Assembly (NCBI GenBank): GCA_017940415.1 | Contig: JAGAYR010000044.1 | Span: forward strand, 62,001-126,000 | Length of the DNA stretch: 64,000 nucleotides | Direction of reading: 5' to 3' | Source of the DNA: Lachnospiraceae bacterium | GTDB lineage: Bacteria > Bacillota > Clostridia > Lachnospirales > Lachnospiraceae | In this document: in pieces, positions 7,265 to 28,352 of the stretch | Numbering within the stretch: position 1 is the stretch's first letter | Layout of the letters: each line of letters begins with the position of its first letter | Position numbers and translations under genes: made by a program | The notes under the pieces: model-generated | The model's input: the letters and a program-made list of their open reading frames with translations, nothing else | The model's database searches: none | What the model was told of the DNA's origin: nothing

Positions 7265-9112
7265 ATGAATAAGATCGGGACCAATTATATATTCCCACTC
7301 ATCACTCAGGAAACCGAAGACGGCATCAGATTTTGCCTTGAAAATAAGGCTTCCGATTGCGGTGTTATTCTGTATGACAGAGTTTCGGGACGGGAAATCG
7401 TGAAGATTCCCTTTGAGCCATCCGATCGGATCGGAAATCTGTATTGCAAAACCGTTTCCGGTTACAAAGCGTCAAATATTTCCTACATCTATTACGCAGG
7501 CGGAAAACTTATATCGGATCCAAGAGCTACGGGGCTTGTTTCGGGAAGAGAATATGCATCTGCCGTTACAGAGCCTTTGAAAGCTGTAATAAATGATTCG
7601 GATTATGATTGGGGATCGGACGAACATCCCCGTTTGAAATATGAGGACAGTTTCTTTTATCTGCTCCATGTCAGAGGATTTACCAAATCCCCTTCATCGG
7701 GAGTAAAGCATAAAGGAACCTATGCCGGCATCATCGAAAAAATAGATTATTTGTATGATCTTGGAGTTACCTGTGTGGAGCTTCAGCCGGCTTACGAATT
7801 TATCGAAACGGAATGCAAACCCGGAATTGAACCCTCATACGGTTACGGAGTATCAAAGCCTCTCCAGGTCATTCCCGGTAAATTAAATTATTGGGGATAT
7901 AAGCCCGGGTATTATTACTCACCCAAGGAAAGCTATTCGTCATCTGCGGATGCATCGGCTGAATTTAAAGATATGGTAAGAGAACTTCATAAACGTGGTA
8001 TGGAGCTTTGCATGCAGTTTTATTTTGCTCCTGATTTTCCCGAATCCGAAGTTCTTGAGATCCTTCGCTATTGGGTGATCAATTATCATGTTGACGGTTT
8101 TCATCTTATGGGAATGAATATTCCGATGAGACTTCTGTCATCCGATTCACTTCTTGCGGGTACGAAACTGTTAAACGATCATCCGGACAATATTGATTTC
8201 GAATCATTGAACTGTTCCGGTCAGGGAAGATTTATCGGATTATACACCGATGATTTCAGATATCCCTTAAGAAGACTCCTTAAGAGTGATGAAGGACAGG
8301 TTTCGGATTCACTTTCGCTGCTCAGATCTAATCCGGAAAATTTCGGACGCATTAATTTCTTTTCGGATTATCAGGGATTTACTCTTATGGACATGGTCAG
8401 TTATGACCGCAAGCATAATGAGGAAAACGGCGAATCGGGAAGGGACGGGAGTGATTATAACTTCAGCTGGAACTGCGGCGAGGAAGGCCCTACACGTAAG
8501 AAAAAGATCCGGGAGCTGAGACTCAGACAGATCAAGAATGCGTATAGCCTCCTGATGCTTGGAGCCGGAACCCCTTTGATATTCATGGGAGACGAATTCG
8601 GAAATTCTCAGATGGGAAACAATAATCCCTACTGTATAGATTCTCCCGTCACTTGGCTTGACTGGAAGGATCTTAAGAAAAACTCCGAGCTGAGTGATTA
8701 TCTAAAAGATCTCGTAAAGCTTCGCAAAGATCACAAGATTCTTCGAAGCGGAAGAGAACTGTATATGATAGATACGGAAAACTGCGGATATCCGGAGATG
8801 AGTTATCATTCCGATACCGCTTACAGAGTTTCCTGCGAGTACTATTCAAGATCTTTCGGTATCATGTATTGCGAAGACAAGGGTGAATCACTTATGTATG
8901 CCGCGGTCAATATGGGATGGGAGAATAAGAAACTTGCTCTTCCGAGACCCCCGAAAGGCTTTGACTGGCGCATCACATATTCTACGGATCCGGAAAGCTT
9001 GTGCAAACCGGATACCAAGGAATTAGAAAAAACGTTTCCCGGCAGGACCGTAACCATATTCCAAACGGTCAGATTTCCCGCGGGAAATAAAACCGGGAAG
9101 GTGAAAAAATGA
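7265..9112 (+). CDS. GH13 isoamylase/GlgX-like protein with all catalytic residues replaced (probable pseudoenzyme)
   Basis: 615 residues from the ATG that best fits the GGAG site; a TTG two codons earlier is possible. An N-terminal CBM48-like domain precedes a GH13 barrel of the debranching-enzyme type. Family landmarks are well kept (RDGSDYNFSWNCG.EGPT, GNNNPYC.D, SWLDW-type end), so the alignment is safe. The catalytic regions are not kept. Region I has Gln251 where the DVVYNH Asp is expected. Region II reads VDGFHLM, with His280 and Met282 in place of the conserved Arg and nucleophilic Asp. The region III Glu aligns with Asp305 (KLLND). Region IV reads DYQGF, with Tyr369 and Gln370 in place of His-Asp. 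Hydrolysis of alpha-1,6 linkages is therefore unlikely; glucan binding or a regulatory role is inferred. It overlaps the next gene by 4 bases. Confidence 0.85.
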   Translation: MNKIGTNYIFPLITQETEDGIRFCLENKASDCGVILYDRVSGREIVKIPFEPSDRIGNLYCKTVSGYKASNISYIYYAGGKLISDPRATGLVSGREYASAVTEPLKAVINDSDYDWGSDEHPRLKYEDSFFYLLHVRGFTKSPSSGVKHKGTYAGIIEKIDYLYDLGVTCVELQPAYEFIETECKPGIEPSYGYGVSKPLQVIPGKLNYWGYKPGYYYSPKESYSSSADASAEFKDMVRELHKRGMELCMQFYFAPDFPESEVLEILRYWVINYHVDGFHLMGMNIPMRLLSSDSLLAGTKLLNDHPDNIDFESLNCSGQGRFIGLYTDDFRYPLRRLLKSDEGQVSDSLSLLRSNPENFGRINFFSDYQGFTLMDMVSYDRKHNEENGESGRDGSDYNFSWNCGEEGPTRKKKIRELRLRQIKNAYSLLMLGAGTPLIFMGDEFGNSQMGNNNPYCIDSPVTWLDWKDLKKNSELSDYLKDLVKLRKDHKILRSGRELYMIDTENCGYPEMSYHSDTAYRVSCEYYSRSFGIMYCEDKGESLMYAAVNMGWENKKLALPRPPKGFDWRITYSTDPESLCKPDTKELEKTFPGRTVTIFQTVRFPAGNKTGKVKK

Positions 9113-9705
9113 GCACTCCTTATTTAATAAGATTTGTTCAGCATTTTGTTACGATCACAAAACATCGTATTCTCGTGTGCAAAGGATGTTTTAAGATCGG
9201 ATTATATTACCAGGGGCTGACTCACGATCTTTCCAAATACTCGCCCGATGAATTTCTTGTGGGAGTTAAGTATTATCAGGGCACGAGAAGCCCCAATAAT
9301 GCGGAACGTGAAGACATCGGATATTCTTCCGCATGGCTTCATCACAAAGGCAGGAATAAGCACCATTACGAATATTGGATAGACTATAACACCAGAGGAG
9401 AAATGCCCGGTGAAGATGTTCTTATCCCTGTGGAAATGCCGGACAGGTATGTTGCTGAGATGGTTATGGACCGAATCGCCGCATCCAAGGTCTATAAGGG
9501 AAAAGAATACAAGGATTCGGATTCGCTGGATTATTTTCTAGGCGGTATCGAAACCGCTCCGATGCATCCGAATACAAGAAAAAAGCTGTACAGATACCTG
9601 AAGATATTGGCAAAGTACGGCGAAGACAAGACTTGCAGGCTTATCAAATATGAATTGAAACACGGACGCTATATTCCCAAGTCAAAAAGGTCCGAATCAG
9701 ATTAA
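9109..9705 (+). CDS. DUF5662 family protein
   Basis: 198 residues with no signal peptide or membrane helix. A His-rich conserved core (THDLSKYSPDEF, then WLHHKGRNKHHYEYWID) matches the DUF5662 family as I remember it. The spacing of His and Asp residues (H..D, HH, HH) suggests a metal-binding helical fold reminiscent of HD-type phosphohydrolases, but this is inference and no activity is established. The start codon lies within the stop of the GH13-like gene (ATGA), so the two are translationally coupled. Function unknown. Confidence 0.75.
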   Translation: MSTPYLIRFVQHFVTITKHRILVCKGCFKIGLYYQGLTHDLSKYSPDEFLVGVKYYQGTRSPNNAEREDIGYSSAWLHHKGRNKHHYEYWIDYNTRGEMPGEDVLIPVEMPDRYVAEMVMDRIAASKVYKGKEYKDSDSLDYFLGGIETAPMHPNTRKKLYRYLKILAKYGEDKTCRLIKYELKHGRYIPKSKRSESD

Positions 9706-9722
9706 AAGGAAATCAAGAACAA

Positions 9723-10826
9723 ATGGCAGGTTCTTCTTTCGGTAAAATATTCAGAATAACCACATGGGGCGAATCCCACGGACCGGCTCTGGGCTGTGTC
9801 ATAGACGGATGCCCTGCAGGTGTGGAATTGTCCGAAGCCGATATCCAGCCTTTTCTCGACAGGAGAAAACCGGGTAATCCCGCAGTTGCAACAGCGAGAA
9901 AAGAATCCGATACTTGTGAGATATTATCCGGAGTGTTTGAAGGCAAGACAACCGGAACTCCCATATCGGTGATTATCAGAAATTCGGATCAGCATTCCGG
10001 TGATTACGATAATATCAAAGACGTTTACAGACCCGGTCATGCGGATTACACATTTGATGCAAAGTACGGTTTCAGAGATTACAGAGGCGGCGGAAGATCA
10101 TCCGGAAGGGAAACGGCCGCAAGGGTTATCGCCGGTGCTGTAGCAATCAAGGTTCTTGGCAGACTCGGAATAAAGGTTGAAGCTTATACCAGATCCATCG
10201 GACCCGTGGAAGCAGACCTTTCCGAATACTCCAGAAGTGCTGTTCTTGCTAATGCAACCGCTATGCCCGATATAGACGCCAATGCCAGAGCTCTGGAATA
10301 TATCGCCGATATGAAAAATAAATCGGATTCTTGCGGCGGTGTTATGGAATGCATTATAAGCGGAGTTCCCGCGGGTATAGGAGATCCTGTATTCGATAAA
10401 CTCGATGCAACTCTTGCACAGGCGGTTATGAGTATCGGAGCCGTTAAAGCAGTTGAGATAGGAGACGGATGCAAAGTAGCAAAATCCGTGGGAAGTAAGA
10501 ATAACGATCAGTTCAGATCTTCCAAGGACGGAGTCGTTAAGAAGTCCAATCACTCGGGCGGTATTCTCGGAGGAATAAGCGATTCGTCGGATATCATTGT
10601 CAGAGCCTCCGTAAAGCCCACTCCGTCTATAGCAAGAAGTCAGAAGACGGTTGATAACAAGGGTGAAAATATCGACATCGAGATTACGGGAAGACACGAT
10701 CCCGTTATTGTTCCCAGAGCTGTAGTAGTACTCGAGAGCATGTGTGCGGTAACAATTCTTGATGCACTTATGAGCGGAATGACATCCAGGATAGATAATC
10801 TTGTCAGCATATATAAAAATCAGTGA
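9723..10826 (+). CDS. aroC: Chorismate synthase
   Basis: 367 residues, the normal length. It converts 5-enolpyruvylshikimate-3-phosphate to chorismate, the last common step of aromatic amino acid synthesis, with reduced FMN. Signatures seen include GSSFGKIFRITTWGESHGPA at the N-terminus, FLDRRKPG, RPGHADYTFDAKYGFRDYRGGGRSSGRETA and the C-terminal RHDPVIVPRA. AAAGGAAA precedes the ATG. The protein is cytoplasmic and monofunctional (no fused flavin reductase). The downstream propeller gene starts right after it, with a ribosome binding site overlapping the aroC stop, so the two are probably cotranscribed. No other aromatic pathway gene is nearby. Confidence 0.97.
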   Translation: MAGSSFGKIFRITTWGESHGPALGCVIDGCPAGVELSEADIQPFLDRRKPGNPAVATARKESDTCEILSGVFEGKTTGTPISVIIRNSDQHSGDYDNIKDVYRPGHADYTFDAKYGFRDYRGGGRSSGRETAARVIAGAVAIKVLGRLGIKVEAYTRSIGPVEADLSEYSRSAVLANATAMPDIDANARALEYIADMKNKSDSCGGVMECIISGVPAGIGDPVFDKLDATLAQAVMSIGAVKAVEIGDGCKVAKSVGSKNNDQFRSSKDGVVKKSNHSGGILGGISDSSDIIVRASVKPTPSIARSQKTVDNKGENIDIEITGRHDPVIVPRAVVVLESMCAVTILDALMSGMTSRIDNLVSIYKNQ

Positions 10827-10837
10827 GGAAACCGGAA

Positions 10838-11944
10838 ATGGCAGAAGAAAAAAAGAAAACTAAATCTTCAAAGGAAAATCAGGACAAGTATGTCGCTTAT
10901 GTTTCCACCTATACAAGGGGAGATAATCACGGCATAAAGATCTATGATGTTGATATGGAGACAGGTCGTTTCAAGGAGAAGGATGAAGTTGATATTTCCA
11001 ACTCATCATATGTCACTGTTTCCCATAACGGAAAATATCTCTATTCAATAACCGACCTCGGTGTTGAGTCTTATAAGATTGCTCCCGACGGAACCCTTGA
11101 TCTTATTAACTTTGCACCTATCAACGGTATGAGAGGATGCTATCTTGCAACCGACTATACAGACAGATATCTTATGGTAGCAGGTTATCATGACGGTAAG
11201 CTTACCGTTCTTCACATCAAGGATAACGGCGGCGTAGGTAAGATAACCGACGAAGTCTTCCATAAGGGTCTCGGCTCCATGGCTGACAGAAACTTCAGAC
11301 CTCATATCGCAAGCGCCAGAATGACCCATGACAACAGATATATCTTGGTTGCCGATCAGGGAATGGATCACGTTAATGTCTATGAGCTTAACCAGGAGAC
11401 CGGTAAGATCAAACTTGTAGATATCATCAGATGCGAACTTGAATCATCCCCCCGTCAGATCAAACTTTCCAAGGACGGAAGATTCATTTATATCTGCCTT
11501 GAGGCTACTTGTAAGATTGATGTATATGAATATACATTTGACGGCAAAGCTCCTTCTTTTGAGAAGATCCAGACCGTTGATGTTATCAAGTTTGAGGACG
11601 GAGCACCTTCCGCTCTCAGCGCTCTTTCTTTTTCAAGCGATTACAAATATATCCTTACAACCGTTGCCGGAGATAATTCCGTAGCTATATTCGGAGCTGA
11701 TGAGAAGACCGGACTTCTTACCAAGAAACTGATTCTTCCCGTCTCAGGCGATTATCCTAAGGATGCGGAGATTCTTCCCGGCAATAAGTTCCTTGTATCA
11801 CTTAATCATGAGTCCAACGAGATGTCCTTCTTTAAACTGGATATCGAACACGGAACCATGATCATGAACGGAGATTTTGTTAAAGTAAATACCCCTAACT
11901 GTATTCTGATCCACAAGCTCAATACCGAGACCGAAGAAAAATAG
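10838..11944 (+). CDS. Lactonase-family seven-bladed beta-propeller protein (6-phosphogluconolactonase-like)
   Basis: 368 residues from the ATG preceded by GAGGAAA. A GTG five codons earlier overlaps the aroC stop and is less likely. After a Lys/Glu-rich start, about seven beta-propeller repeats can be seen, with phrases such as YVAYVSTYTRG, SHNGKYLYSITD, THDNRYILVADQGMDHVNVYEL, SKDGRFIYICLEA and LPGNKFLVSLNHESNE. This matches the YbhE/Pgl lactonase family. The family includes 6-phosphogluconolactonases, but many members have unproven substrates, and no pentose phosphate gene is close. Cytoplasmic by sequence. Probably cotranscribed with aroC. Confidence 0.8.
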   Translation: MAEEKKKTKSSKENQDKYVAYVSTYTRGDNHGIKIYDVDMETGRFKEKDEVDISNSSYVTVSHNGKYLYSITDLGVESYKIAPDGTLDLINFAPINGMRGCYLATDYTDRYLMVAGYHDGKLTVLHIKDNGGVGKITDEVFHKGLGSMADRNFRPHIASARMTHDNRYILVADQGMDHVNVYELNQETGKIKLVDIIRCELESSPRQIKLSKDGRFIYICLEATCKIDVYEYTFDGKAPSFEKIQTVDVIKFEDGAPSALSALSFSSDYKYILTTVAGDNSVAIFGADEKTGLLTKKLILPVSGDYPKDAEILPGNKFLVSLNHESNEMSFFKLDIEHGTMIMNGDFVKVNTPNCILIHKLNTETEEK

Positions 11945-11968
11945 TGTTTTCCGAAAGGTTCACAGGAG

Positions 11969-13069
11969 ATGCTTAATCTTTCCCGTAAGGAAATGGTCTC
12001 TGAAGAGATCAGAAAACGCGGAAAAAAGAATAAGGCATTTAAGTTTTTCTCTCCGATTATCAAGGGGGGCTTGTTTGCGTGGATCGGTTTATGTGAATTC
12101 TGCAGCGGACACTTGATCAAATTTGTATTGTTATGTACATCCGGATTATGCTTTATTGCTTTCTGCAGTTTTTCGTTTCCTTTGTTTACGGGATCTGTTA
12201 CAAATCTGGGTATCATCGATTTCAACGAACTTGATGAGTCCATATCTCTTGCAGATGAGGATGAGGATTTCCTGACTGCCGATGAAGCCAGAAAGATTTT
12301 CTATAAAGACTTCAGGGGTGAGGACGGATCTCTTTATACAGGTTATGTAAGCGTCAATTCCGAAGGCCAGGAAGTTATCGCAATTAAAACCGATGACATT
12401 CTTGAGGATGTTTATGTGGGAGATTCGATACTTACGGATGAACCGGATGCGACCTGTTCCGATCTTTACGAAGAGTACGATCTGGACAGTCTTGTTTTTG
12501 ACAGAAACGACTGGAGACTGATCCTTGTTAATAAGCAGCATTCCGTACCTGCCGGATATGAATTCCCGTTGGGCGAACTTGCAGCAAACGTACAGTGCGA
12601 TGAACGCGTTATCGATGATCTTGTGATGATGCTTCGGGACGCAAGAAACGCAGGAATGAACATCTGGATCGTATCACCTTACAGATCCGGAGAGAAACAG
12701 GAAAATCTGTTTAATTATGATCTCAGCAAGTATATCGATTCCGGAATGAATTATTTTGATGCGTATCAGCTTGCCGCAGAGGCGGTAACACTTCCCGGAA
12801 CCAGTGAGCATCAGATCGGACTTGCTTTTGATATCGTTAATAATGAGTACGCCCACTTGGGTGAGGGTTTCGGCGAGACACCCGAAGGAATCTGGCTTGC
12901 GGAGAACTGCTATAAATACGGTTTTATCCTCAGATATCCTGCGGATAAGGAATATATTACAACTATTGAATATGAACCCTGGCATTTCAGATATGTGGGC
13001 AGAGAAGCTGCGGCATATATGACGCTCAAGGGATTAACACTTGAAGAATTCTGGGAGACAGTATTTTGA
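11969..13069 (+). CDS. VanY-type D-alanyl-D-alanine carboxypeptidase, membrane anchored
   Basis: 366 residues. A basic N-terminus is followed by a hydrophobic segment (about 47-75), then an acidic extracytoplasmic linker and a C-terminal peptidase M15B domain (about 190-366). Zinc ligands are visible: His281 and Asp288 in SEHQIGLAFD, and His339 with catalytic Glu336 in YEPWHFRYVG. The enzyme should remove the terminal D-Ala from peptidoglycan stem peptides. The region before the domain (about 90-180) is not recognised. It overlaps tgt by 4 bases. With the L,D-transpeptidase at 20440 it forms part of the wall-remodelling set in this window. Nothing suggests a vancomycin resistance cluster. Confidence 0.88.
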   Translation: MLNLSRKEMVSEEIRKRGKKNKAFKFFSPIIKGGLFAWIGLCEFCSGHLIKFVLLCTSGLCFIAFCSFSFPLFTGSVTNLGIIDFNELDESISLADEDEDFLTADEARKIFYKDFRGEDGSLYTGYVSVNSEGQEVIAIKTDDILEDVYVGDSILTDEPDATCSDLYEEYDLDSLVFDRNDWRLILVNKQHSVPAGYEFPLGELAANVQCDERVIDDLVMMLRDARNAGMNIWIVSPYRSGEKQENLFNYDLSKYIDSGMNYFDAYQLAAEAVTLPGTSEHQIGLAFDIVNNEYAHLGEGFGETPEGIWLAENCYKYGFILRYPADKEYITTIEYEPWHFRYVGREAAAYMTLKGLTLEEFWETVF

Positions 13070-14205
13070 GTTCATGTTTTAAACTTATCAAAAAAGACGG
13101 CGAAGCCAGAAGGGGAGAGCTGACAACGGTACATGGTACGGTTCAGACTCCTCTTTTTATGAATGTGGGAACCGTAGCCGCCATAAAGGGCGGAGTTTCA
13201 TCCGAAGATCTTGAGAATATCGGATGTCAGGTTGAGCTGTCCAATACATATCATCTTCATGTAAGAACCGGCGATGATCTTATCAAAAGATTCGGTGGTC
13301 TTCATAAGTTTATGGACTGGCATAAACCGATTCTGACCGATTCCGGAGGGTTTCAGGTTTTCTCGCTGGCATCCATGAGAAAGATTAAAGAAGAAGGTGT
13401 AACCTTCAGAAGCCATATCGACGGGCACAAGATCTTCATGGGGCCGGAAGAGAGCATGCGGATACAGAGCAATCTCGGTTCCACGATCGCCATGGCGTTT
13501 GATGAGTGTCCTCCCGCTAAAGCTGCAAGGGAATATGTGCTTCCTTCGGTTCAGAGAACGGAAAGGTGGCTGGCAAGATGTAAAGCGGAGATGGACAGGC
13601 TGAATTCCCTTGAAGATACCATCAATAAGGATCAGCTTCTTTTCGGTATAAATCAGGGTGCTGTCTACAATGACATCAGAATAGAAAACGCAAAGAAGAT
13701 ATCCGAACTTGATCTTCCGGGATATGCCATAGGCGGACTTGCGGTCGGAGAAACTCATGAGGAGATGTATGACGTTATAGAGCATACCGCGCCTTTCCTT
13801 CCCATAGATAAGCCCAGATACCTGATGGGTGTGGGAACTCCCGCCAATATTCTTGAGGCAGTTGACCGCGGTATAGATATGTTCGACTGTGTATATCCTT
13901 CCAGAAACGGCAGACACGGACATCTGTATACCCACTTCGGTAAGATCAATATCAATAACGCCAAGTATGCCGAAGATGACAGGCCGATTGAAGAAGGCTG
14001 TCAGTGTCCCGCCTGCAGAAGATATTCCAGAGCATATATCCGCCATCTGCACAAATCCGGTGAGATGCTGGGACTCAGACTTTGTGTACTCCATAATCTG
14101 TATTTTTATAATCATCTTATGGAAGAGATTCGTCAGGCGATTGATGAAGACAGATTTGCATCTTTCAAAAGAGAGATGCTGGATAATCTTAAAGCAGAGA
14201 AATAA
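13066..14205 (+). CDS. tgt: Queuine/preQ1 tRNA-guanine transglycosylase
   Basis: 379 residues. It exchanges guanine-34 of Asp, Asn, His and Tyr tRNAs for preQ1. Signatures seen are TPLFMNVGTVAAIKG, the catalytic-Asp region LTDSGGFQVFSL, GINQGAVYNDIR, YAIGGLAVGE, the second Asp in MFDCVYPSRNGRHG, and the zinc site CQCPACRRYSRAYIRHLHKSGE plus a His in CVLHN. The start is a TTG sharing bases with the VanY stop, which fixes translational coupling. Unlike the common arrangement, no queA or ruvB is adjacent; the neighbours are wall genes and yajC, the latter a usual partner of tgt. Confidence 0.97.
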   Translation: MSSCFKLIKKDGEARRGELTTVHGTVQTPLFMNVGTVAAIKGGVSSEDLENIGCQVELSNTYHLHVRTGDDLIKRFGGLHKFMDWHKPILTDSGGFQVFSLASMRKIKEEGVTFRSHIDGHKIFMGPEESMRIQSNLGSTIAMAFDECPPAKAAREYVLPSVQRTERWLARCKAEMDRLNSLEDTINKDQLLFGINQGAVYNDIRIENAKKISELDLPGYAIGGLAVGETHEEMYDVIEHTAPFLPIDKPRYLMGVGTPANILEAVDRGIDMFDCVYPSRNGRHGHLYTHFGKININNAKYAEDDRPIEEGCQCPACRRYSRAYIRHLHKSGEMLGLRLCVLHNLYFYNHLMEEIRQAIDEDRFASFKREMLDNLKAEK

Positions 14206-14221
14206 AAGGGGGTTATATAAT

Positions 14222-15061: not shown

Positions 15062-15155
15062 ATTTTTTATTTGATACTTTTCCTGATATCGTGTATCATC
15101 AGAAAAGTGTGCAGAACACATTTGAATTCAGAATTTTGATCGGAGGACTATTAAT

Positions 15156-15518
15156 ATGAAATTATTGCTTCTCACCGCTGAAGAAGCTGCTGCTGCAGAG
15201 GCAGGACTCGGAAGCTTACTTCCCGTTGTTATCATGTACGGTATCATCATCTTCGCACTTTGGTTCTTCTTCATGAGACCTCAGAGCAAAGAGAGAAAGA
15301 AGACCCAGGAGATGCTCGCTACCCTCGAAGTTGGCGATGTAGTAGTTACCACCTCAGGCTTCTACGGAGTTCTCATCGATGTAACCGACGACGACGTAAT
15401 CGTAGAGTTCGGCAACAACCGTAACTGCCGTATCCCCATGGAGAAATCCGCCATCGCCCGTGTTGAAAAGCCCGGCCAGGAAGCTCCCGCTGAGTCTGAC
15501 AAGAAGAAAGACAAGTAA
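15156..15518 (+). CDS. yajC: Preprotein translocase subunit YajC
   Basis: 120 residues: one membrane helix (about 22-42, PVVIMYGIIIFALWFFFMRP), the family motif RPQSKERKK, then a small soluble domain with the typical VGDVVVTTSGFYGVLIDV and a Lys-rich tail. YajC joins SecDF at the translocon. Preceded by GATCGGAGGA. It is usually found next to tgt, as here (one gene away). A terminator follows directly, so it closes the transcript. Confidence 0.95.
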   Translation: MKLLLLTAEEAAAAEAGLGSLLPVVIMYGIIIFALWFFFMRPQSKERKKTQEMLATLEVGDVVVTTSGFYGVLIDVTDDDVIVEFGNNRNCRIPMEKSAIARVEKPGQEAPAESDKKKDK

Positions 15519-20439: not shown

Positions 20440-21882
20440 ATGTCCTCCGATCAAGAAAAGCTTTCCAAGAAAAATAAAAAGATCATTTGTATAGGAGCGG
20501 TTATCGCTACGCTTCTGATCATATATCTGGGAACTGCATTTTATTTCAGAAACAGATTCCTTCCTAATACGTGGATCGGAGATGTTTACTGTACCGGAAG
20601 AAGTACCCGTGCCGTTGCTTATGACCTTAAAGAAAAAATAGTTATACCCGATATCAGGATAAGCTGGGCTGATGATGGTTTTGAAGATTCCTATATCAGA
20701 CCTGAAGATATAGCATACAGCTATAACCTGACTTCATCTGTTGTTAAAGCTGTTGAGTCACAGAATATTTTTTCATGGCCTGCATGTCTGTTTACCAAGC
20801 AGAATCTTCAGCTTGACCCTGTTATAAATTTTAATACGGATCTGTTAAGAAGCAGATTTTTCCAGCTCGAAAGAGTCAGAACCGAAACTGCGGAGACTCC
20901 CGAGTACTCCATCAGGTTTGATCATGAAACCGGATACTATGTCTATGACAATCATTCAGGAAGGCTTGATGCGGAAAAAGCTCTTCAGGCACTTTCCGAT
21001 GCACTTGCGGGAGGTAAACTTTCCCTTACATTGGATTCCTCGTTTTATTACGATGCTCCATATACCGCAGAAGAGAATGCTTCCATCAAGGAATGGAATG
21101 AACTTTCATCTTTTCTTACCACCGATCTTGTCTATGACATGGGTGCCGAGAAGATTGCCTTCGATTCAACGGTAATGAGTTTTCTTATAGTATCCGAAAG
21201 AAACGGTGATCCCGTTAAAGACGAGGACGGATCATACATCATCGATGATGACGCGGTTGCAGCGTGGATTGATGACCTGTGTGAAGCATATAATACGTAC
21301 GGTTTGGACAGGGAATTCGTTTCATCCACCGGTAAGACTGTTATTATACCAGCAACATACAGTGATTACGGAACCGAACTTAACCATGATGCGGAACTCA
21401 GATACCTCACTAATTATCTTCATTCCGAAGAAGCGTGGGATAAAGTTCCGGACGATCACATTCCACAGTACAATGTGGAAGCTACCGTCAGAGGCCTTAA
21501 CGATATAGGCGATACCTTTGTTGAAGTCGATCTTTCCGATCAGTACCTGTATTATTACAAGAACGGTGAGCTTATAGTGGAGACCGATATCGTATCGGGT
21601 GACATTCCCAAAGGATGGACAACCCCCAGAGGAGTCTTCTCCATTAACGGCAAATATACGGATCAGTATCTCTACGGAAAAGATTACATAGATTTCGTTT
21701 CTTACTGGATGCCATATTTCAGAGGATACGGACTCCATGATTCCGACTGGAGAGATGAGTGGGGCGGTGATATTTATACCTATGACGGATCTCACGGATG
21801 TATAAATATGGATAAGGATCCTGCCCGTAATATTTTTGAAAATATAGAAATTGGAACTCCCGTTGTTGTTTACGATTATTAA
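20440..21882 (+). CDS. L,D-transpeptidase (YkuD family), membrane anchored
   Basis: 480 residues. An N-terminal membrane helix (about 17-37) is followed by an extracytoplasmic region with a PG-binding-4-like domain (about 50-330). The C-terminal YkuD catalytic domain (about 360-480) has the catalytic Cys454 in GSHGCINMDKD, with His452. The enzyme should make 3-3 cross-links in peptidoglycan or attach proteins to stem peptides. It begins 2 bases after ilvB, so it is probably carried on the same transcript despite an unrelated role. It is followed by the serC promoter. Of the wall enzymes here (with VanY at 11969), it is the likely cross-linker. Confidence 0.92.
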   Translation: MSSDQEKLSKKNKKIICIGAVIATLLIIYLGTAFYFRNRFLPNTWIGDVYCTGRSTRAVAYDLKEKIVIPDIRISWADDGFEDSYIRPEDIAYSYNLTSSVVKAVESQNIFSWPACLFTKQNLQLDPVINFNTDLLRSRFFQLERVRTETAETPEYSIRFDHETGYYVYDNHSGRLDAEKALQALSDALAGGKLSLTLDSSFYYDAPYTAEENASIKEWNELSSFLTTDLVYDMGAEKIAFDSTVMSFLIVSERNGDPVKDEDGSYIIDDDAVAAWIDDLCEAYNTYGLDREFVSSTGKTVIIPATYSDYGTELNHDAELRYLTNYLHSEEAWDKVPDDHIPQYNVEATVRGLNDIGDTFVEVDLSDQYLYYYKNGELIVETDIVSGDIPKGWTTPRGVFSINGKYTDQYLYGKDYIDFVSYWMPYFRGYGLHDSDWRDEWGGDIYTYDGSHGCINMDKDPARNIFENIEIGTPVVVYDY

Positions 21883-21883
21883 G

Positions 21884-21912
21884 TTGACTAAAGGGTTTCA
21901 AAAGTATATTTT
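21884..21912 (+). promoter_or_regulatory. Probable promoter for serC-serA
   Basis: TTGACT at 21884-21889 and TATTTT at 21907-21912 are 17 bases apart; an overlapping TATATT at 21905-21910 gives 15. It lies immediately after the L,D-transpeptidase stop and would give a leader of about 210 bases containing the tandem repeats. Confidence 0.55.
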
Positions 21913-21955
21913 ATAAAAAGTGAATTTTTATTCAGAATGCTGAGCGAGACCATCG

Positions 21956-22126
21956 CTTACATATAACTAATGCCGCTGTCGCGGCGAATTTAAGGAGGCT
22001 AGGTGCTAGCTTCGCTAGCACTTACATAAATTAATGCCGCTATCGCGGCGAATTTAAGGAGGCTAGGTGCTAGCTTCGCTAGCACTTACATAAATTAATG
22101 CCGCTATCGCGGCGAATTTAAGGAGG
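21956..22126 (+). repeat. Three tandem copies of a hairpin plus Shine-Dalgarno leader module
   Basis: Units lie at 21956-22020 (65 nt, slightly diverged), 22021-22084 (64 nt) and 22085-22126 (partial). Each carries a GCCGC-TATC-GCGGC hairpin, the sequence GAATTTAAGGAGG (a perfect ribosome binding site), and, in the first two, a GTGCTAGC-TTC-GCTAGCAC hairpin. The third AAGGAGG serves serC at 22133; the first two have no start codon in reach. A degenerate relative (GCTGAGCGAGACCATCGCTTAC) precedes unit 1. The high identity suggests recent duplication of the leader. Confidence 0.9.
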
Positions 22127-22132
22127 AAAGCA

Positions 22133-23215
22133 ATGTCAAGAGTTTACAATTTTTCGGCAGGACCTGCTGTTTTGCCCGAAGAAGTACTGAAGGAAGCTGC
22201 AGAGGAGATGCTTGATTATAAGGGATCAGGCCAGTCCGTAATGGAGATGAGCCACAGATCTAAGGTGTATGACACCATTATCAAGGAAGCTGAAGCCGAT
22301 CTTCGCGAACTCATGAATATTCCCGATAATTATAAGGTACTGTTCCTTCAGGGTGGTGCATCCCAGTTCTTCGCAGAAGTTCCCATGAACATGATGAAGA
22401 ATAAGAAAGCCGGATACATCATCACCGGACAGTGGGCTAAGAAGGCTTTCCAGGAAGCTAAGATCTATGGTGAGGCAGTTGAGCTTGCTTCATCTGCTGA
22501 TAAGACCTTCAGCTACATCCCCGATTGTTCCGATCTTCCCATCACCGATGATATGGACTATGTATACATCTGTGAGAACAATACCATTTACGGAACCAAG
22601 TATAAGACTCTTCCCAATACCAAGGGTAAGATCCTTGTTTCCGACGTTTCCTCCTGTTTCCTTTCAGAGCCTGTTGATGTTACCAAGTACGGTGTAATCT
22701 ACGGCGGCGTTCAGAAGAATGTAGGACCTGCAGGCTGTGTTATCGCAATCATCAGAGAAGACCTTATCACCGACGAGTGCCTTCCCGGAACTCCCACCAT
22801 GCTTAAGTGGAAGACTCAGGCTGATAATGATTCTCTTTACAATACTCCTCCCTGCTACACCATCTACATCTGCGGCAAGGTATTCAAGTGGCTCAAGAAG
22901 ATGGGCGGCCTTGAGGAGATGAAGAAGAGAAATGAAGAGAAGGCTAAGATCCTTTATGATTTCCTTGATTCTTCCAAGCTTTTCAAGGGAACTGTCGTAA
23001 AAGAAGACAGATCTCTCATGAATGTTCCTTTTGTAACCGGTAATGAAGAACTTGACGCTAAGTTCGTAAAAGAAGCTACCGAGGCAGGATTTGTTAACCT
23101 CAAGGGTCACAGAACCGTTGGCGGTATGAGAGCATCCATCTACAATGCTATGCCCAAGGAAGGTGTAGAGAAGCTCGTTGAGTTTATGAAGAAATTCGAG
23201 GCTGAGAACGCGTAA
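22133..23215 (+). CDS. serC: Phosphoserine aminotransferase
   Basis: 360 residues. It transfers an amino group from glutamate to 3-phosphohydroxypyruvate (serine synthesis; also used in B6 synthesis). Seen: YNFSAGPAVLPEEVL at the N-terminus, LFLQGGASQFFAEVPMN, SDVSSCFLSEP and the PLP-binding Lys195 in GGVQKNVGPAG, with RASIYNAMP near the end. The start is fixed by AAGGAGG seven bases upstream, the third copy of the leader repeat. serA follows after 26 bp. Confidence 0.97.
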   Translation: MSRVYNFSAGPAVLPEEVLKEAAEEMLDYKGSGQSVMEMSHRSKVYDTIIKEAEADLRELMNIPDNYKVLFLQGGASQFFAEVPMNMMKNKKAGYIITGQWAKKAFQEAKIYGEAVELASSADKTFSYIPDCSDLPITDDMDYVYICENNTIYGTKYKTLPNTKGKILVSDVSSCFLSEPVDVTKYGVIYGGVQKNVGPAGCVIAIIREDLITDECLPGTPTMLKWKTQADNDSLYNTPPCYTIYICGKVFKWLKKMGGLEEMKKRNEEKAKILYDFLDSSKLFKGTVVKEDRSLMNVPFVTGNEELDAKFVKEATEAGFVNLKGHRTVGGMRASIYNAMPKEGVEKLVEFMKKFEAENA

Positions 23216-23241
23216 TCCGCCTCTTTGAAAGGAGTTTTCAG

Positions 23242-24408
23242 ATGTTTAAGATCAATTGCCTTAATCCCATATCTCAGGTAGGTCTCGCTGACCTTACCGA
23301 TGATTTCCAGATAACCGATAAGACCGAAGAGGCAGAAGGTATCCTTGTAAGAAGCGCTGCTATGCATGATATGGATCTTCCCGATTCTCTTCTTGCAGTT
23401 GCAAGAGCAGGTGCCGGTGTAAATAATATTCCTCTTGATAAGTGTGCCGAGAAAGGTATTGTTGTATTCAATACTCCCGGCGCTAACGCAAACGGCGTTA
23501 AGGAGCTTGTTATCGCAGGTATGCTTCTTGCTGCAAGAGATGTTGTCGGTGGTATTCAGTGGTGCAAAGACAATGCATCGGATGCTGATATTGCTAAGAC
23601 CGCTGAGAAGCAGAAGAAGTATTTTGCAGGTACCGAGATTGCAGGCAAGAAGCTTGGCGTTATCGGACTCGGCGCTATCGGCGTTAAGGTTGCCAACGCA
23701 GCACAGAACCTCGGAATGCAGGTTTACGGTTACGATCCTTACCTCTCCGTTAATGCTGCTTGGAATCTTTCAAGAAGCGTTATCCATGTAGAGAAGGTAG
23801 AAGAAATCTACAAAGAGTGTGATTACATCACCATTCACGTACCTCTTCTTGATTCCACAAAGGGTACCATCAATCGTGAAGCTATCTCCATGATGAAAGA
23901 CGGTGTTGTTGTTATCAACTATGCAAGAGATCTTCTTGTTTCCGAGACCGATATGCTTGAGGCTCTCAAGAACGGCAAGGTAGCAAGATACGTAACCGAT
24001 TTCCCCAACTCCACAACTGCAGGACAGCCCGGAGTTATCCTTACCCCTCACCTTGGAGCAAGTACCGAAGAGTCCGAAGACAATTGTGCTAAGATGGCAG
24101 TTGCCGAGATCATGGATTACCTCAATAACGGAAACATCAGAAATTCCGTTAACTATCCCGCACTTGATATGGGCGTTTGCGACAAGAAGGGAAGAGTTGA
24201 AGTATTCCACAAGAATCAGGCTAACATGATCACTCAGTTCACCGCAGTTATCGGTGCTGAGAAGATCAATATCTCCGACATGATGAACAAGTCCAGGGGA
24301 GATTATGCAGTAACTATGCTTGATCTTGATGACGTTCCCACTCCTCACCTTGTTGAGAAGCTTTCCGCTGCCGAAGGCGTTCTCCGCGTAAGAGTAGTAA
24401 AGGGATGA
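23242..24408 (+). CDS. serA: D-3-phosphoglycerate dehydrogenase with C-terminal ACT domain
   Basis: 388 residues. It oxidises 3-phosphoglycerate to 3-phosphohydroxypyruvate with NAD+, the step before SerC. Seen are RAGAGVNNIPLDKC, the Rossmann motif LGVIGLGAIGVKVANAAQNLGM, YITIHVPLLDSTKGTIN, NYARDLLV, and the catalytic His in TPHLGASTEES. A short ACT domain occupies the last 70 or so residues (NMITQFTAVIGAEKINISDMMN), where serine feedback would act. Preceded by AAAGGAG. A strong terminator closes the serC-serA unit. Confidence 0.96.
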   Translation: MFKINCLNPISQVGLADLTDDFQITDKTEEAEGILVRSAAMHDMDLPDSLLAVARAGAGVNNIPLDKCAEKGIVVFNTPGANANGVKELVIAGMLLAARDVVGGIQWCKDNASDADIAKTAEKQKKYFAGTEIAGKKLGVIGLGAIGVKVANAAQNLGMQVYGYDPYLSVNAAWNLSRSVIHVEKVEEIYKECDYITIHVPLLDSTKGTINREAISMMKDGVVVINYARDLLVSETDMLEALKNGKVARYVTDFPNSTTAGQPGVILTPHLGASTEESEDNCAKMAVAEIMDYLNNGNIRNSVNYPALDMGVCDKKGRVEVFHKNQANMITQFTAVIGAEKINISDMMNKSRGDYAVTMLDLDDVPTPHLVEKLSAAEGVLRVRVVKG

Positions 24409-24420
24409 TGTGAGTAATAT

Positions 24421-24458
24421 AAAACGGGTGTACATCTGAGATGTACACCCGTTTTTTT
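24421..24458. terminator. Terminator after serA, also facing the small minus-strand gene
   Basis: AAACGGGTGTACAT pairs with ATGTACACCCGTTT (about 14 bp) around a CTGAG loop, with seven T residues after it on the plus strand and A residues on the other side. Confidence 0.92.
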
Positions 24459-24468
24459 AAATAATTAT

Positions 24469-24732
24469 TTACTTTTTCTCGCCGTCTTCAATATCCTTGA
24501 GAGAGTCCTGAAGTTTCTTTTCCATCTCGGTAGCGGCTTCACTTGCAAGATCCATATACTCGATGAATATGTCACTGAGTGATTTGTCCTGCTCTTCACC
24601 GATCTGCTTCATGATGGGTGTCAGCTTCTCAAGCTGATATGAAATCGGAGTGTGCTGAGGATCAATATCGGGCATTACTTCTTCCGCATAATCATTGATC
24701 CTTTTTAACATTGCTCTTTGTTCTTCTGTCAT
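24469..24732 (-). CDS. Small conserved-looking helical protein of unknown function
   Basis: 87 residues, highly charged, predicted almost wholly alpha-helical, with no signal peptide, membrane segment or Cys pair. It starts with MTEEQRAMLKRINDYAEE and ends in an acidic/basic DIEDGEKK tail. A GGGGAAG ribosome binding site 6 bases before the ATG and codon use like the neighbours support it as real. It lies alone on the minus strand, convergent with serA through the terminator at 24421-24458. I do not recognise the family. Confidence 0.65.
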   Translation of the reverse strand: MTEEQRAMLKRINDYAEEVMPDIDPQHTPISYQLEKLTPIMKQIGEEQDKSLSDIFIEYMDLASEAATEMEKKLQDSLKDIEDGEKK

Positions 24733-24882
24733 AACTTCCCCTATTTATTACCTTAATAATCCTCTTTGATAATCTGCATTATAGCATGTAGAAACTTGTT
24801 TGTATAACCGTATAATGCTAAAATAATCATTGATTTTTACATAATAATATTATAACGATTTCTATAAAACGGAGACTTAAAA
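24733..24882. promoter_or_regulatory. Divergent intergenic region before DUF1015
   Basis: 150 bp of very A/T-rich DNA between divergent starts. TATAAT at 24811-24816 is a candidate -10 for the DUF1015 gene, without a convincing -35. AAAACGGAGAC before 24883 is its ribosome binding site. Confidence 0.4.
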
Positions 24883-26124
24883 ATGGCTGACGTAAGACCT
24901 TTTAATGCATACAGACCCAAAAGAGGAATGGAGTCTGTTATCGCAGCTCTTCCCTATGATGTTTACAACAGAGCAGAGAGTTTGGAAGTTGTCAAAAACA
25001 ACCCCGAAAGCTTTCTTGCCATAGACAGAGCAGAAACTCAGTTTTCCGATGATGTGGATACCTATGATCCCAGAGTATATGACAAAGCCAGGGACATGAT
25101 CCGGGAAAGGATTGACGACGGCCGTTTTGTACAGGATGATGGTGAGCCCGGATATTATCTGTATGAACTTACAATGGACGGAAGAGTTCAGAACGGCATT
25201 GTAGCCTGTGCATCCATAGACGATTATATGAACGGTGTGATCAAGAAGCATGAAAACACACGTGCCGATAAGGAAGTGGACCGCATAAATCACGTTGATA
25301 AGACGGGGTTCCAGACAGGTCCCATTTTCCTGGCATACAGACACAACGACGTTCTTGCTTCGATCATCGAATCTGTTAAAAAAGGTGTGGCTGACTGCGA
25401 TTTTACCTCTGATGACGGTATCAGACACAGAGTCTTTTCCATCAATGATGCGGATAAAGTTAAGACCATCAGAGATGAGTTTTCCGGAACCGATGCTCTT
25501 TATATCGCGGACGGTCATCACAGATGTGCATCGGCTGTTAAAGTCGGATTGAAAAGAAGAGAAGAAAATCCGGGATATACCGGTGATGAAGAATTTAACT
25601 ATTTCCTCAGTGTTATATTCCCCGGGGATGAACTTAAAATCCTTGATTATAACAGAGTAATTAAAGATCTTAACGGCCTCACCGAAGTTCAGTTCTTCAA
25701 TGAGGTTATCGACAGATTCGAAGTATGTGATGCAAAGAAGCTGTATTCTCCCGAAGATAAAGGCCTTTTCGGTATGTATATCAGCGGTAAGTGGTATAAG
25801 CTTCGTGCTCATCATGATCTTAAGTCAGACGATCCTGTAAAAGGATTGGATGTTTCGGTTCTTCAGGATGGACTGCTCGGTCCCGTTCTCGGAATCGGTG
25901 ATCCGAGAACCGACAAGAGAATTGATTTTGTCGGCGGTATAAGAGGACTCGGCGAACTTGAGAGAAGATGCAAAGATGATATGCAGGTTGCATTTTCCAT
26001 GTTCCCCACATCCATCGAAGAACTCTTTAAGGTAGCGGACGAAGGCCTCCTGATGCCTCCCAAATCTACCTGGTTTGAACCCAAGCTTCGCAGCGGACTT
26101 TTCTTACATAAGATCGATCAATAA
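24883..26124 (+). CDS. DUF1015 family protein, neighbour of serC-serA
   Basis: 413 residues, typical of DUF1015. It begins MADVRPFNAYRP and has LPYDVYN, KKHENTRADKEVDRINHV and IADGHHRCASA (Asp210, His212-213, Arg214). The DGHHR motif recalls the nucleotide-binding motif of ParB/sulfiredoxin-fold enzymes, a group that includes the archaeal free serine kinase SerK. Together with its place next to serC-serA, this suggests a role in serine or phosphoserine metabolism. This is inference; the family has no function that I can name with certainty. No serB is present in the window. The GlgB-like gene follows after 20 bp. Confidence 0.88.
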   Translation: MADVRPFNAYRPKRGMESVIAALPYDVYNRAESLEVVKNNPESFLAIDRAETQFSDDVDTYDPRVYDKARDMIRERIDDGRFVQDDGEPGYYLYELTMDGRVQNGIVACASIDDYMNGVIKKHENTRADKEVDRINHVDKTGFQTGPIFLAYRHNDVLASIIESVKKGVADCDFTSDDGIRHRVFSINDADKVKTIRDEFSGTDALYIADGHHRCASAVKVGLKRREENPGYTGDEEFNYFLSVIFPGDELKILDYNRVIKDLNGLTEVQFFNEVIDRFEVCDAKKLYSPEDKGLFGMYISGKWYKLRAHHDLKSDDPVKGLDVSVLQDGLLGPVLGIGDPRTDKRIDFVGGIRGLGELERRCKDDMQVAFSMFPTSIEELFKVADEGLLMPPKSTWFEPKLRSGLFLHKIDQ

Positions 26125-26144
26125 AATATTTAGGGGTTGATGAT

Positions 26145-28352
26145 ATGAATAAGAGACTTTATAAGCTAATGGATTGGGCATTTATCGAGGAGGTTATCTA
26201 TTCCGAGTGTTCGCATCCTCAGGATATTCTCGGACCTCACCTGAAAGGACAGACCGTACTTCTGCAGGCATATTTTCCCGGTGCGGAGTCTGTGGTTGTT
26301 AAATGGAAAGACAGAGGAGAACCCGGCAAACCTTCCGAGACACAGATGGAAGTTGCTGATGACGACGGATTCTTTGCTCAGCTTCTTCCCACTAAGGATC
26401 CCGGAGCTTACACATATGTTGTCACTTATGAGGAGAGACAGGAAGGCGGAAAGACTCTTAAGAAAAAAGTACTCAGATGCGGTGACCCCTACAGACATAC
26501 AGGTCTGTTAAACGATAAGGACATTGCAAGATTTATCGAAGGCAAATGCCTTAATGCTTCTGAAATTCTCGGATCTCATTTTATGGAGCATGACGGAGAA
26601 GAAGGTACTCTTTTTGCCGTATATGCACCTAATGCAATGAGAATCAGCGTTGTAGGTGATTTCAATTCATGGGACGGAAGACTCGATCAGATGTGTAAGA
26701 GAGAGGAATCCGGAATCTTTGAACTCTTTATTCCCGGCGTGAAGCCCGGAGAAAAATACCAATACGAGATCAAATTTAAGAATTACGATATATGCAGAAA
26801 AGCCGATCCTTACGCTTCCGAACTTCTCATGGAAAACGGCTTTGTTTCTGTTGTTGCGGATAAACAAACCGAAAAGTGCAAATCTCTTTATTCCGGAAAG
26901 CACGTTGATAAGAACTCCGCTCTTTGCATATATCAGGTTAATCCCTTTGAATACGTAAATGAAGAAACATCCGCATTTACAAAGATGCTTAAAGTTATTC
27001 CTGCGTTATGTAAGGATTCGGGTTTTACTCACGTAAACATCGGTAACGTACTTACTTCGTCCGGAAGCAGAAGAGAAAAGTCCATTTCTTTTTATGCCAT
27101 TGATAAGAGACTTGGCTCTGCCGATGAACTTAAGGCATTTGTAAATGCACTTCATGATGCACGTATCGGAGTAATCTTTGACTGGGTTCCTTCTTTCTTT
27201 GCACATGAAGAAGGCGGTTTATCTCTTTTTGACGGAACCGGACTTTATGAACACATTGATCCCAGACAGGGTTATGCTGCGGATATCGATGCATGTCTGT
27301 TTAATTATTCTTCAAACACTGTTTCAAACTTCCTTCTTTCATCGGGATTTAAGTATGCCGATGAATTCGGAGCTGACGGAATCAGGGTTTGCGGTATTGC
27401 CAGAATGCTTTATCTGGATTACAGCAAGACCGAATGGGTTCCCAATATTTATGGCGGTAATGAGAATCTGGATGCTATCTCTTTCCTGAAGGACTTCAAT
27501 TCTCAGATCAAGTCTAAGTATCCCGGTATGCTTCTCATAGCAGAGGATTCTTCTCTTCATCAGGGAATTACCGATCCTGTGAGTGATAACGGGTTAGGTT
27601 TTGATTATAAGTGGAATGAAGTTTTCTTTGACGACTTCAGGAATTTCATGTGCATGGATCCGCTCTACAGAGGTCAGAACCTTCACCTTCTTCCCGATGA
27701 ACTGACCTATGCTTTTGTTGAAGATTTCGTTCTTCCTTTTGCGGGAAGAGAGAAGACTTCCGAGATCGGTAAGCTTTATGATCTGCTTCCCGGTGATGGA
27801 GCTATGAAGAAGGCTCAGATGAAACTTGCTGCAGGATACCTGTTTGCTCATCCCGGCAAAAAGGCCATTGGTGATGCGCCTGAGATAACCGGCAGATTAC
27901 TCAAAGATCTTAATGATCTGTATGAAAAGGAACCTGCGCTTAATCGTAGTGAAAACGATCCTGAAAACTTTGAGTGGCTTAGCAATATGAATGCGGATCA
28001 GGCCTGTGTTTCTTTTGTCAGAAAGACGGACGATCCGGAGGATATGCTTGTGTTTGTGGTCAACTTCTCGGGAATCGAACAGTCATTTTCAACCGGTGTT
28101 CCTTACGAAGGAAAATACAAAGAGATCTTTACCACGGATGATAAAGCGTACGGAGGATCATCTTCCGTATCCAAAACCGTAAGAAAAGCAACCGACAAGA
28201 GAATGGACGGAAGGACTCAATCCATATCCGTTAAAATAAGACCTTTGAGTATGATCATCATGAAGTTCATACCTTACACGGAAGCAGAACTTGAGAAGGT
28301 TATCGAGCAGAGGATCAGGAACTATACTCCCATCAAAAAGAGTAAGAAGTGA
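26145..28352 (+). CDS. GlgB-like GH13 protein lacking the catalytic nucleophile (probable pseudoenzyme)
   Basis: 735 residues with branching-enzyme architecture: two N-terminal beta-sandwich (CBM48-like) modules (about 35-110 and 150-235), a GH13 barrel and a C-terminal beta domain. Branching-enzyme landmarks survive: VVGDFNSWDGR, GVIFDWVPSFF, FDGTGLYEHIDPRQG, MLYLDYSKTEWVPNIYGGNENLDAI, GLGFDYKWN and HPGKK. Catalytic regions are altered: GIRVCGIA has Cys416 in place of the nucleophilic Asp, and LPFAGREK has Gly534 and Arg535 where SHDE is expected, so the transition-state Asp is lost. The acid/base Glu467 (IAEDSS) is kept. Glucan branching is therefore unlikely. Likely cotranscribed with DUF1015. 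The ribosome binding site before ATG (TAGGGGTTG) is reasonable. Confidence 0.85.
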   Translation: MNKRLYKLMDWAFIEEVIYSECSHPQDILGPHLKGQTVLLQAYFPGAESVVVKWKDRGEPGKPSETQMEVADDDGFFAQLLPTKDPGAYTYVVTYEERQEGGKTLKKKVLRCGDPYRHTGLLNDKDIARFIEGKCLNASEILGSHFMEHDGEEGTLFAVYAPNAMRISVVGDFNSWDGRLDQMCKREESGIFELFIPGVKPGEKYQYEIKFKNYDICRKADPYASELLMENGFVSVVADKQTEKCKSLYSGKHVDKNSALCIYQVNPFEYVNEETSAFTKMLKVIPALCKDSGFTHVNIGNVLTSSGSRREKSISFYAIDKRLGSADELKAFVNALHDARIGVIFDWVPSFFAHEEGGLSLFDGTGLYEHIDPRQGYAADIDACLFNYSSNTVSNFLLSSGFKYADEFGADGIRVCGIARMLYLDYSKTEWVPNIYGGNENLDAISFLKDFNSQIKSKYPGMLLIAEDSSLHQGITDPVSDNGLGFDYKWNEVFFDDFRNFMCMDPLYRGQNLHLLPDELTYAFVEDFVLPFAGREKTSEIGKLYDLLPGDGAMKKAQMKLAAGYLFAHPGKKAIGDAPEITGRLLKDLNDLYEKEPALNRSENDPENFEWLSNMNADQACVSFVRKTDDPEDMLVFVVNFSGIEQSFSTGVPYEGKYKEIFTTDDKAYGGSSSVSKTVRKATDKRMDGRTQSISVKIRPLSMIIMKFIPYTEAELEKVIEQRIRNYTPIKKSKK

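What the first reader, a model, noticed from the sequence alone, without database searches (positions are those of the whole stretch)
7265..28352. Two independent GH13 pseudoenzymes in one 21-kb stretch: a possible non-catalytic glucan-handling pair
The two proteins come from different GH13 subfamilies (debranching and branching types), both with intact frames and CBM48-like modules, and both catalytically dead by residue inspection. Parallel loss in the two opposing enzyme types suggests a shared new role, such as binding glycogen or exopolysaccharide, or regulating the active enzymes.
Basis: inference. Interest (0 to 1): 0.72.

Follow-up and report, generated by a model that had tools for sequence, protein, structure and literature searches.

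The report
Two dead glycogen enzymes, separate origins
A Lachnospiraceae bacterium carries two intact but, by sequence, catalytically dead relatives of glycogen-debranching and glycogen-branching enzymes; one belongs to an old dead-enzyme family widespread among its relatives, the other died later in one genus-level group, so both may bind glycogen rather than cut it.

Summary
Both proteins are real, intact and, by sequence, dead. X (window 7265-9112) is a GlgX/isoamylase relative; B (26145-28352) is a GlgB relative. The same genome encodes GlgX and GlgB with intact active sites elsewhere.

They are not a matched pair. X belongs to one dead clade spread through Lachnospiraceae: clear similarity matches in 269 of 397 sampled genomes; all 61 sequences inspected lack the nucleophile and share a deletion of about 45 residues. 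B is the orthologue of a glgB that is intact in other Lachnospiraceae at the same serA-DUF1015 locus; it died once, in the clade that holds this genus. The X-B linkage also occurs where B is intact.

Both are under purifying selection (dN/dS 0.04-0.09). X keeps residues of a glucan-binding 'border lobe' known from plant ISA1. B's constraint moved from the barrel to its N- and C-terminal parts. Best reading: non-catalytic glycogen-binding accessory proteins, like plant ISA2 in principle. X is not simply a GlgX subunit: 164 of 269 X genomes show no canonical GlgX. Binding and function are inferred.

Ten searches of an open-licence paper library found no description of either.

The parts
7265..9112 (+). 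X: catalytically dead GlgX/isoamylase-type (GH13_11-like) protein, 615 aa from ATG 7265 (frame open from TTG 7259)
   Evidence: catalytic columns; dead clade; dN/dS
7664..8017 (+). X: first half of the barrel, residues about 136-253 (the Pfam Alpha-amylase match is 141-253), with NYWGY at 210-214; a segment that follows in intact GlgX (residues about 342-385 of the paralogue L005) is missing
   Evidence: PF00128 match; gap in 61 of 61 X sequences
8093..8116 (+). X: former region II, DGFHLMGM; the nucleophile Asp and following residues of intact GlgX (DGFRFDLA...) are deleted
   Evidence: gap at the nucleophile column in 61 of 61
8411..8641 (+). X: conserved KHNxxNGE...SWNCGxEG...GDEFxxxxxGNNNxYCxD region; N387, W404 and N454 align with maize ISA1 N561, W578 and N628 (border lobe / SBS2)
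   Evidence: maize positions from PMC12510319
9109..9705 (+). DUF5662 protein overlapping the X stop (ATGA); next to X in at least 19 of 41 loci (crude gene calling), but its presence in a genome is independent of X
22133..24408 (+). serC- and serA-like genes (Pfam class-V aminotransferase and 2-hydroxyacid dehydrogenase; gene names are my reading), part of the shared glgB locus
24883..26124 (+). DUF1015 gene immediately upstream of B; a homologue is found near 51 of 54 intact long-type glgB loci
26145..28352 (+). B: catalytically dead long-type GlgB, 735 aa (GlgB_N, CBM48, barrel, C-terminal domain, conserved helical tail)
26145..26240 (+). B: N-terminal 32 residues (MNKRLYKLMDWAFIEEVIYSEC...GPH), mean pairwise identity 84-97% inside the dead clade, depending on divergence class
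28269..28352 (+). B: C-terminal tail (from residue 709) with a predicted helix; mean identity 77-97% in dead B, 30% in intact orthologues

Best explanation
X and B are two separately evolved non-catalytic glycogen-handling proteins, not a co-evolved pair. X descends from an isoamylase/GlgX that lost a segment of about 45 residues between regions I and II, and the stretch that carries the nucleophile (shown by alignment), probably at or before the spread of Lachnospiraceae (inferred). It was then kept by purifying selection (shown in four close genomes) in most of the family. It retained the GH13_11 border-lobe residues that belong to a glucan site in plant ISA1 (residue identity shown, binding inferred). 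Most likely it sits on outer chains of glycogen and helps or limits another enzyme of glycogen turnover (inferred). Because most X-bearing genomes show no canonical GlgX, that enzyme is more likely a branching enzyme or phosphorylase than GlgX. B is the serA-DUF1015-linked glgB of Lachnospiraceae. In this genus, where 22 of 24 genomes have a second, short GlgB, it lost its active site (one origin in the tree) and is now conserved for its N-terminal part and C-terminal tail (shown), probably as a glycogen-bound scaffold or adaptor (inferred).
For: X: nucleophile and a shared segment missing in 61 of 61 near-full-length sequences (22 of this genus, 39 of others); one clade against 25 intact GlgX in a tree of 32 of the 61 (SH-aLRT 100); clear matches in 269 of 397 family genomes. 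N387, W404 and N454 are 61 of 61 and align with maize border-lobe positions (PMC12510319, sections and passages read). Genomes with glgC: 267 with X, 90 without; genomes without glgC: 2 with X, 7 without (Fisher p 0.0017). GlgB found in 40 of 40 chosen X genomes and 34 of 40 chosen non-X genomes. B: 27 dead sequences form one clade inside intact orthologues (SH-aLRT 100); DUF1015 neighbour in 51 of 54 intact and 17 of 26 dead loci; in pairs of 60-75% overall identity barrel identity is 0.66 in dead against 0.81 in intact, tail 0.97 against 0.30. dN/dS 0.05-0.09 (X) and 0.04-0.07 (B), against 0.02-0.04 for the intact paralogues.
Against: No binding or interaction was measured. The border-lobe residues are also conserved in intact GlgX (N387 24 of 25, W404 23 of 25, N454 25 of 25), so they may be structural; maize R504 did not land on an Arg. 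X has no detectable CBM48. X sits among housekeeping genes, with no glycogen gene recognised near it in the window. Some X keep single catalytic letters: Glu at the acid column in 10 of 61, His and Asp of region IV in 11 and 9 of 61. Two genomes (G072, G207) have X without a glgC match. The association tests ignore phylogeny.
Confidence: 0.55

Rival explanations
1. ISA2-like subunit: X forms a heteromer with the active GlgX of the cell and tunes where it debranches, as plant ISA2 does with ISA1.
For: Same subfamily and same kind of loss; X-bearing genomes have canonical GlgX more often (105 of 269) than X-lacking ones (12 of 97; p 5e-7). Precedent in maize and rice (PMC12510319, sections read).
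Against: 164 of 269 clear-X genomes show no canonical GlgX at E<=1e-130; 7 of 24 genomes of this genus have X but no GlgX-like match, although these drafts are 79-92% complete; 9 of 10 genomes with an intact B orthologue have an X match but no GlgX-like match. ISA2 keeps SBS1 and lacks the SBS2 sequence (paper), the reverse of what X appears to keep; SBS1 was not tested in X.
Confidence: 0.13
2. One reading: X and B act together in one non-catalytic complex, and B was recruited by X when it died.
For: Both are present in 22 of 24 genomes of the genus (a fragment of X in G023, no B in G017); they lie 13.5-17.0 kb apart in nine genomes with both on one contig.
Against: X exists without a dead B in other genera. 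The linkage also exists where B is intact (about 15.6-17.4 kb in the genomes of L099, L101 and L103; contigs matched by number or length). They sit in different gene neighbourhoods.
Confidence: 0.12
3. Slow decay: one or both are on the way to becoming pseudogenes.
For: dN/dS is about two to three times that of the intact paralogues; B's nucleophile position is now occupied by nine different residues including D; one X match (G436) is partial with a TGA inside.
Against: No internal stop in the X and dead-B matches listed (lists capped); dN/dS well below 1; 99 columns at 90% or more identity in 61 X sequences; highly conserved N-terminal part and tail in B.
Confidence: 0.05
4. New chemistry: one of them catalyses another reaction with a rebuilt site. 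B keeps its general-acid Glu in every dead sequence inspected while the nucleophile varies freely.
For: Glu kept in 23 of 23 genus sequences and 26 of 26 dead loci (overlapping sets); AEDSS invariant in the 22 sequences.
Against: The nucleophile position is variable, the region IV His is lost in all and the barrel is the least conserved part. In X the acid position is also variable.
Confidence: 0.1

Closest known systems
Plant isoamylase 2 (ISA2, GH13_11), PMC12510319 (abstract, sections 6 and 15 and passages read)
   Same: GH13_11 relative, ancient, nucleophile and other catalytic residues lost, conserved across a whole lineage; faster sequence change than active paralogues.
   Different: ISA2 has an extra N-terminal beta-sandwich and a loop filling the channel, works with ISA1, keeps SBS1 and lacks SBS2. 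X is shorter than GlgX, has deletions instead, keeps the border-lobe residues, and often occurs without canonical GlgX.
GlgX / bacterial isoamylase (TIGR02100)
   Same: Best family match of X (E 2.4e-79); SWNCG and GNNNxYC regions shared.
   Different: Scores 267.2 bits against a cut-off of 640.9; no nucleophile, a segment between regions I and II missing, no detectable CBM48.
GlgB (TIGR01515; CAZy GH13_9 by recall)
   Same: B scores 465.0 against a cut-off of 463.95, so automatic annotation would probably call it a branching enzyme; same domains and fold.
   Different: No nucleophile, no region I or IV His; a segment near residue 576 (LLFMGQDFGQ... of the intact paralogue) is lost.
Chlamydiae GlgA-GlgB fusion with an inactive branching domain (PMC11046441, passages seen)
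   Same: A bacterial branching-enzyme domain that became inactive.
   Different: It arose by fusion and rearrangement; B is a free-standing gene at its shared locus.

Membership tests
Active GlgX / isoamylase (GH13_11) | Asp nucleophile in region II | tested here: not met
   Deleted in 61 of 61 X sequences, D in 25 of 25 intact GlgX
Active GlgX / isoamylase (GH13_11) | Score above TIGR02100 equivalog cut-off | tested here: not met
   267.2 bits against 640.9
Active GlgX / isoamylase (GH13_11) | Sequence descent from isoamylases | tested here: met
   Best PDB relatives are isoamylases, E 2.1e-63
Active GlgB (GH13_9) | Score above TIGR01515 cut-off | tested here: met
   465.0 against 463.95 bits
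Active GlgB (GH13_9) | Catalytic Asp nucleophile and region I/IV His | tested here: not met
   Window B has C, F and G; 53 of 54 other orthologues have D, and all 54 have both His
Plant-type ISA2 | Loss of nucleophile in a conserved GH13_11 paralogue | tested here: met
Plant-type ISA2 | Active isoamylase partner always present | tested here: not met
   No canonical GlgX match in 164 of 269 clear-X genomes
Plant-type ISA2 | Extra N-terminal beta-sandwich domain | tested here: inconclusive
   X is shorter than GlgX (median open frame 632 against 719 aa), which leaves little room for it; the single-sequence structure model of X failed (pLDDT 31.9)
Plant-type ISA2 | Physical complex with ISA1 and glucan binding at SBS1 | not testable with these tools
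   Needs protein

The most novel reading that the evidence does not exclude
Lachnospiraceae carry their own ancient non-catalytic isoamylase family, a bacterial counterpart of plant ISA2 that evolved by a different structural route (loss of a segment between regions I and II and of the nucleophile, retention of the border-lobe glucan site). It acts as a GlgX-independent glycogen-binding organiser of branching or phosphorolysis; in one genus a second such protein was made from the branching enzyme of the shared locus.
Probability: 0.4. Interest if true: 0.75.

Novelty: new variant of a known kind. Interest (0 to 1): 0.6.

Why it matters
If X binds glycogen without cutting it, a large gut and rumen bacterial family has a conserved structural or regulatory glycogen protein whose closest annotated family is a debranching enzyme. 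It would give a bacterial test of the question raised by plant ISA2: what a catalytically dead isoamylase does. B shows the same transition caught more recently, with intact orthologues at the same locus for comparison and one early-branching intermediate (G022) that keeps the nucleophile. B passes the NCBI cut-off for a branching enzyme by about one bit, so it is likely to be mis-annotated.

Tried and rejected
DUF5662 as a functional partner of X was considered because it overlaps X's stop and lies next to X in at least 19 of 41 loci (my crude gene calling missed it beside X in G042 and G061, where one search shows it); rejected because its presence is the same with X (34 of 40 genomes) and without (33 of 40). 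Regulation by c-di-GMP (known for Streptomyces GlgX, PMC9530166, passages read) was considered because GGDEF genes lie in the window; the binding residues were not tested. glgC was a weak marker because 388 of 397 genomes have it. Ten paper searches listed no description of dead GlgX or GlgB in Lachnospiraceae; the library holds open-licence papers only.

Rows dropped or chosen before counts: the two partial X rows (L018, L021) were left out of the 61. The X tree used 32 of the 61 X sequences; the B tree used 27 of 54 intact orthologues. Only the best 80 of 177 B relatives were seen, and membership of the genus was matched by coordinates or contig length for some of the 26 dead loci, not for all. 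The 40 X loci were chosen by me among the better-scoring matches (37 genera), so of the 269 clear-X genomes only these 40 and the window's own were checked residue by residue; X in the 10 genomes was checked in one (the genome of L099, as L151). 'Clear X' means E<1e-90; 31 genomes between 1e-90 and 1e-70 were set aside as ambiguous, 18 of which have canonical GlgX. The 80 genomes were hand-picked at 97% completeness or more. In the 10 genomes I could place X and B on one contig in three; in the others they lay further apart, on other contigs, or could not be placed.
Full report
1. Observation. The window lies in a 2.69-Mb draft genome (84% complete). Members of its genus include Lachnospiraceae bacterium P6A3 and AC2028, matched by identical coordinates or contig length; close relatives include rumen metagenome assemblies. 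Two intact frames were checked. X (7265-9112) matches GlgX/isoamylases. B (26145-28352) matches GlgB, and its AlphaFold2 model (pLDDT 84.6) matches branching-enzyme structures best. Against the GlgX and GlgB with intact motifs in the same genome (contigs C7 and C5), X lacks every canonical catalytic residue; B lacks the nucleophile, the region I and IV histidines and the region IV Asp, and keeps the acid Glu, the region I Asp and the region II Arg.

2. Genus. X is found in 23 of 24 genomes of the genus plus a 70-residue fragment in the last, B in 23 of 24. All 23 X sequences (two partial) lack the nucleophile. All 23 B sequences have lost the region I and IV histidines; 22 of 23 have lost the nucleophile, and the early-branching G022 keeps it. 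The general-acid Glu of B is kept in 23 of 23. Where both lie on one contig (nine genomes compared), 13.5-17.0 kb separate them. A GlgX-like second match is found in 17 of 24 genomes and a short-GlgB match in 22 of 24; residues of these second copies were checked only in part. Many of these genomes are incomplete.

3. X beyond the genus. Of 397 Lachnospiraceae genomes, 269 have a clear X match, 31 an ambiguous one and 97 none. I fetched 40 X loci from 37 genera, chosen among the better-scoring matches: all 40 lack the nucleophile. In 61 near-full-length X sequences the nucleophile column is a gap in 61, and a stretch of about 45 residues of intact GlgX upstream of it is absent in all; the other catalytic columns vary, with Glu at the acid column in 10, His and Asp of region IV in 11 and 9, and Arg of region II in 6 of 61. 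32 X sequences form one clade apart from 25 intact GlgX (SH-aLRT 100; the root is not known). In 16 genomes, one from each of 16 other families of the order, no X was recognised: the three best matches were intact GlgX when inspected, the rest scored E 1.9e-11 or worse or nothing. So X looks like an old family-specific dead enzyme.

4. B beyond the genus. Of the best 80 loci sharing its unusual N-terminus (177 relatives found), 26 are dead and 54 have intact motifs, apart from one D-to-N nucleophile change in L117. In a tree with 27 of the 54, the 26 dead loci and G022's B form one clade nested among them (SH-aLRT 100). The other orthologues sit at the same locus: DUF1015 neighbour in 51 of 54, and in 17 of 26 dead loci, several of which have short flanks. 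All 10 tested genomes with intact B have an X match, one of them partial, and in three X and B are about 15.6-17.4 kb apart (contigs matched by number or length). The linkage therefore appears older than B's death.

5. Constraint. Nei-Gojobori dN/dS among four close genomes: X 0.05-0.09, B 0.04-0.07, intact GlgX 0.02-0.04, intact GlgB 0.02-0.03; dS exceeds 1 in the X and B pairs, so these are approximate. In pairs of 60-75% overall identity, dead B has barrel identity 0.66, first 32 residues 0.95 and tail 0.97; intact orthologues have 0.81, 0.77 and 0.30. Selection has shifted from the barrel to the ends.

6. Mechanism for X. Maize ISA1 has a border lobe with a glucan site (SBS2) apart from the catalytic centre; W578 contacts the glucan in the model, and R504, N561 and N628 lie in the lobe (PMC12510319, sections read). 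By the isoamylase alignments, W578, N561 and N628 correspond to X W404, N387 and N454, each 61 of 61 in X; R504 landed one residue off an Arg and is not counted. Intact GlgX also keeps them mostly, so this shows retention, not gain. Four other positions are nearly fixed in X and rare in intact GlgX: K223, E392, Q424 and D505. The paper reports that ISA2 lacks the SBS2 sequence and keeps SBS1, so X would be a differently built non-catalytic isoamylase.

7. Which partner. X genomes have canonical GlgX more often than X-less ones (105 of 269 against 12 of 97, p 5e-7), but 164 of 269 show none. X is depleted in genomes without glgC (2 of 9) against those with it (267 of 357 after setting aside 31 ambiguous; p 0.0017). 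GlgB was found in all 40 chosen X genomes and 34 of 40 chosen non-X genomes. These tests ignore shared ancestry. DUF5662, the frequent neighbour, is independent of X. I favour a glycogen-bound accessory role with GlgB or phosphorylase over a GlgX subunit; this is inference, and phosphorylase was not searched.

8. Novelty. Non-catalytic GH13_11 proteins are known from plants, and an inactive GlgB domain from Chlamydiae (PMC11046441, passages seen). I found no report of these Lachnospiraceae proteins in ten searches of an open-licence library. I class it as a new variant of a known kind.

Noticed in passing
window 9109-9705: DUF5662 protein overlapping the X stop codon by ATGA; its sequence has HDLSK and HH motifs that recall an HD-type metal protein (resemblance by eye, from recall).
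   Followed up: partly
L117 (uncultured Acetatifactor sp., Lapin-032 bin19): An otherwise intact long-type GlgB with the nucleophile Asp changed to Asn: a possible second, very recent loss or an assembly error.
   Followed up: no
L061 (G022 B) against the other dead B: The earliest branch of the dead B clade keeps the nucleophile and acid but has lost both histidines, which suggests that the loss went by steps.
   Followed up: partly
second or third matches in G061, G070, G053, G056, G198, G216, G224, G227, G241, G358: A further, divergent class of GlgB-like proteins of about 590-650 aa (E 1e-158 to 1e-184) in several Lachnospiraceae; catalytic state not checked.
   Followed up: no
window B, IAEDSS motif (residues 465-470): The general-acid Glu stays in every dead B inspected although the nucleophile position is free to vary.
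   Followed up: partly
G436 (genome of L093), C103:2242-3612: The X match in the genome of the closest intact B relative covers only residues 134-579 and has one TGA inside: a possible decaying or fragmentary X.
   Followed up: no
window 1650-2981 and 31264-32988: GGDEF and GGDEF-EAL proteins near X and B; Streptomyces GlgX is known to bind c-di-GMP, not tested here.
   Followed up: no
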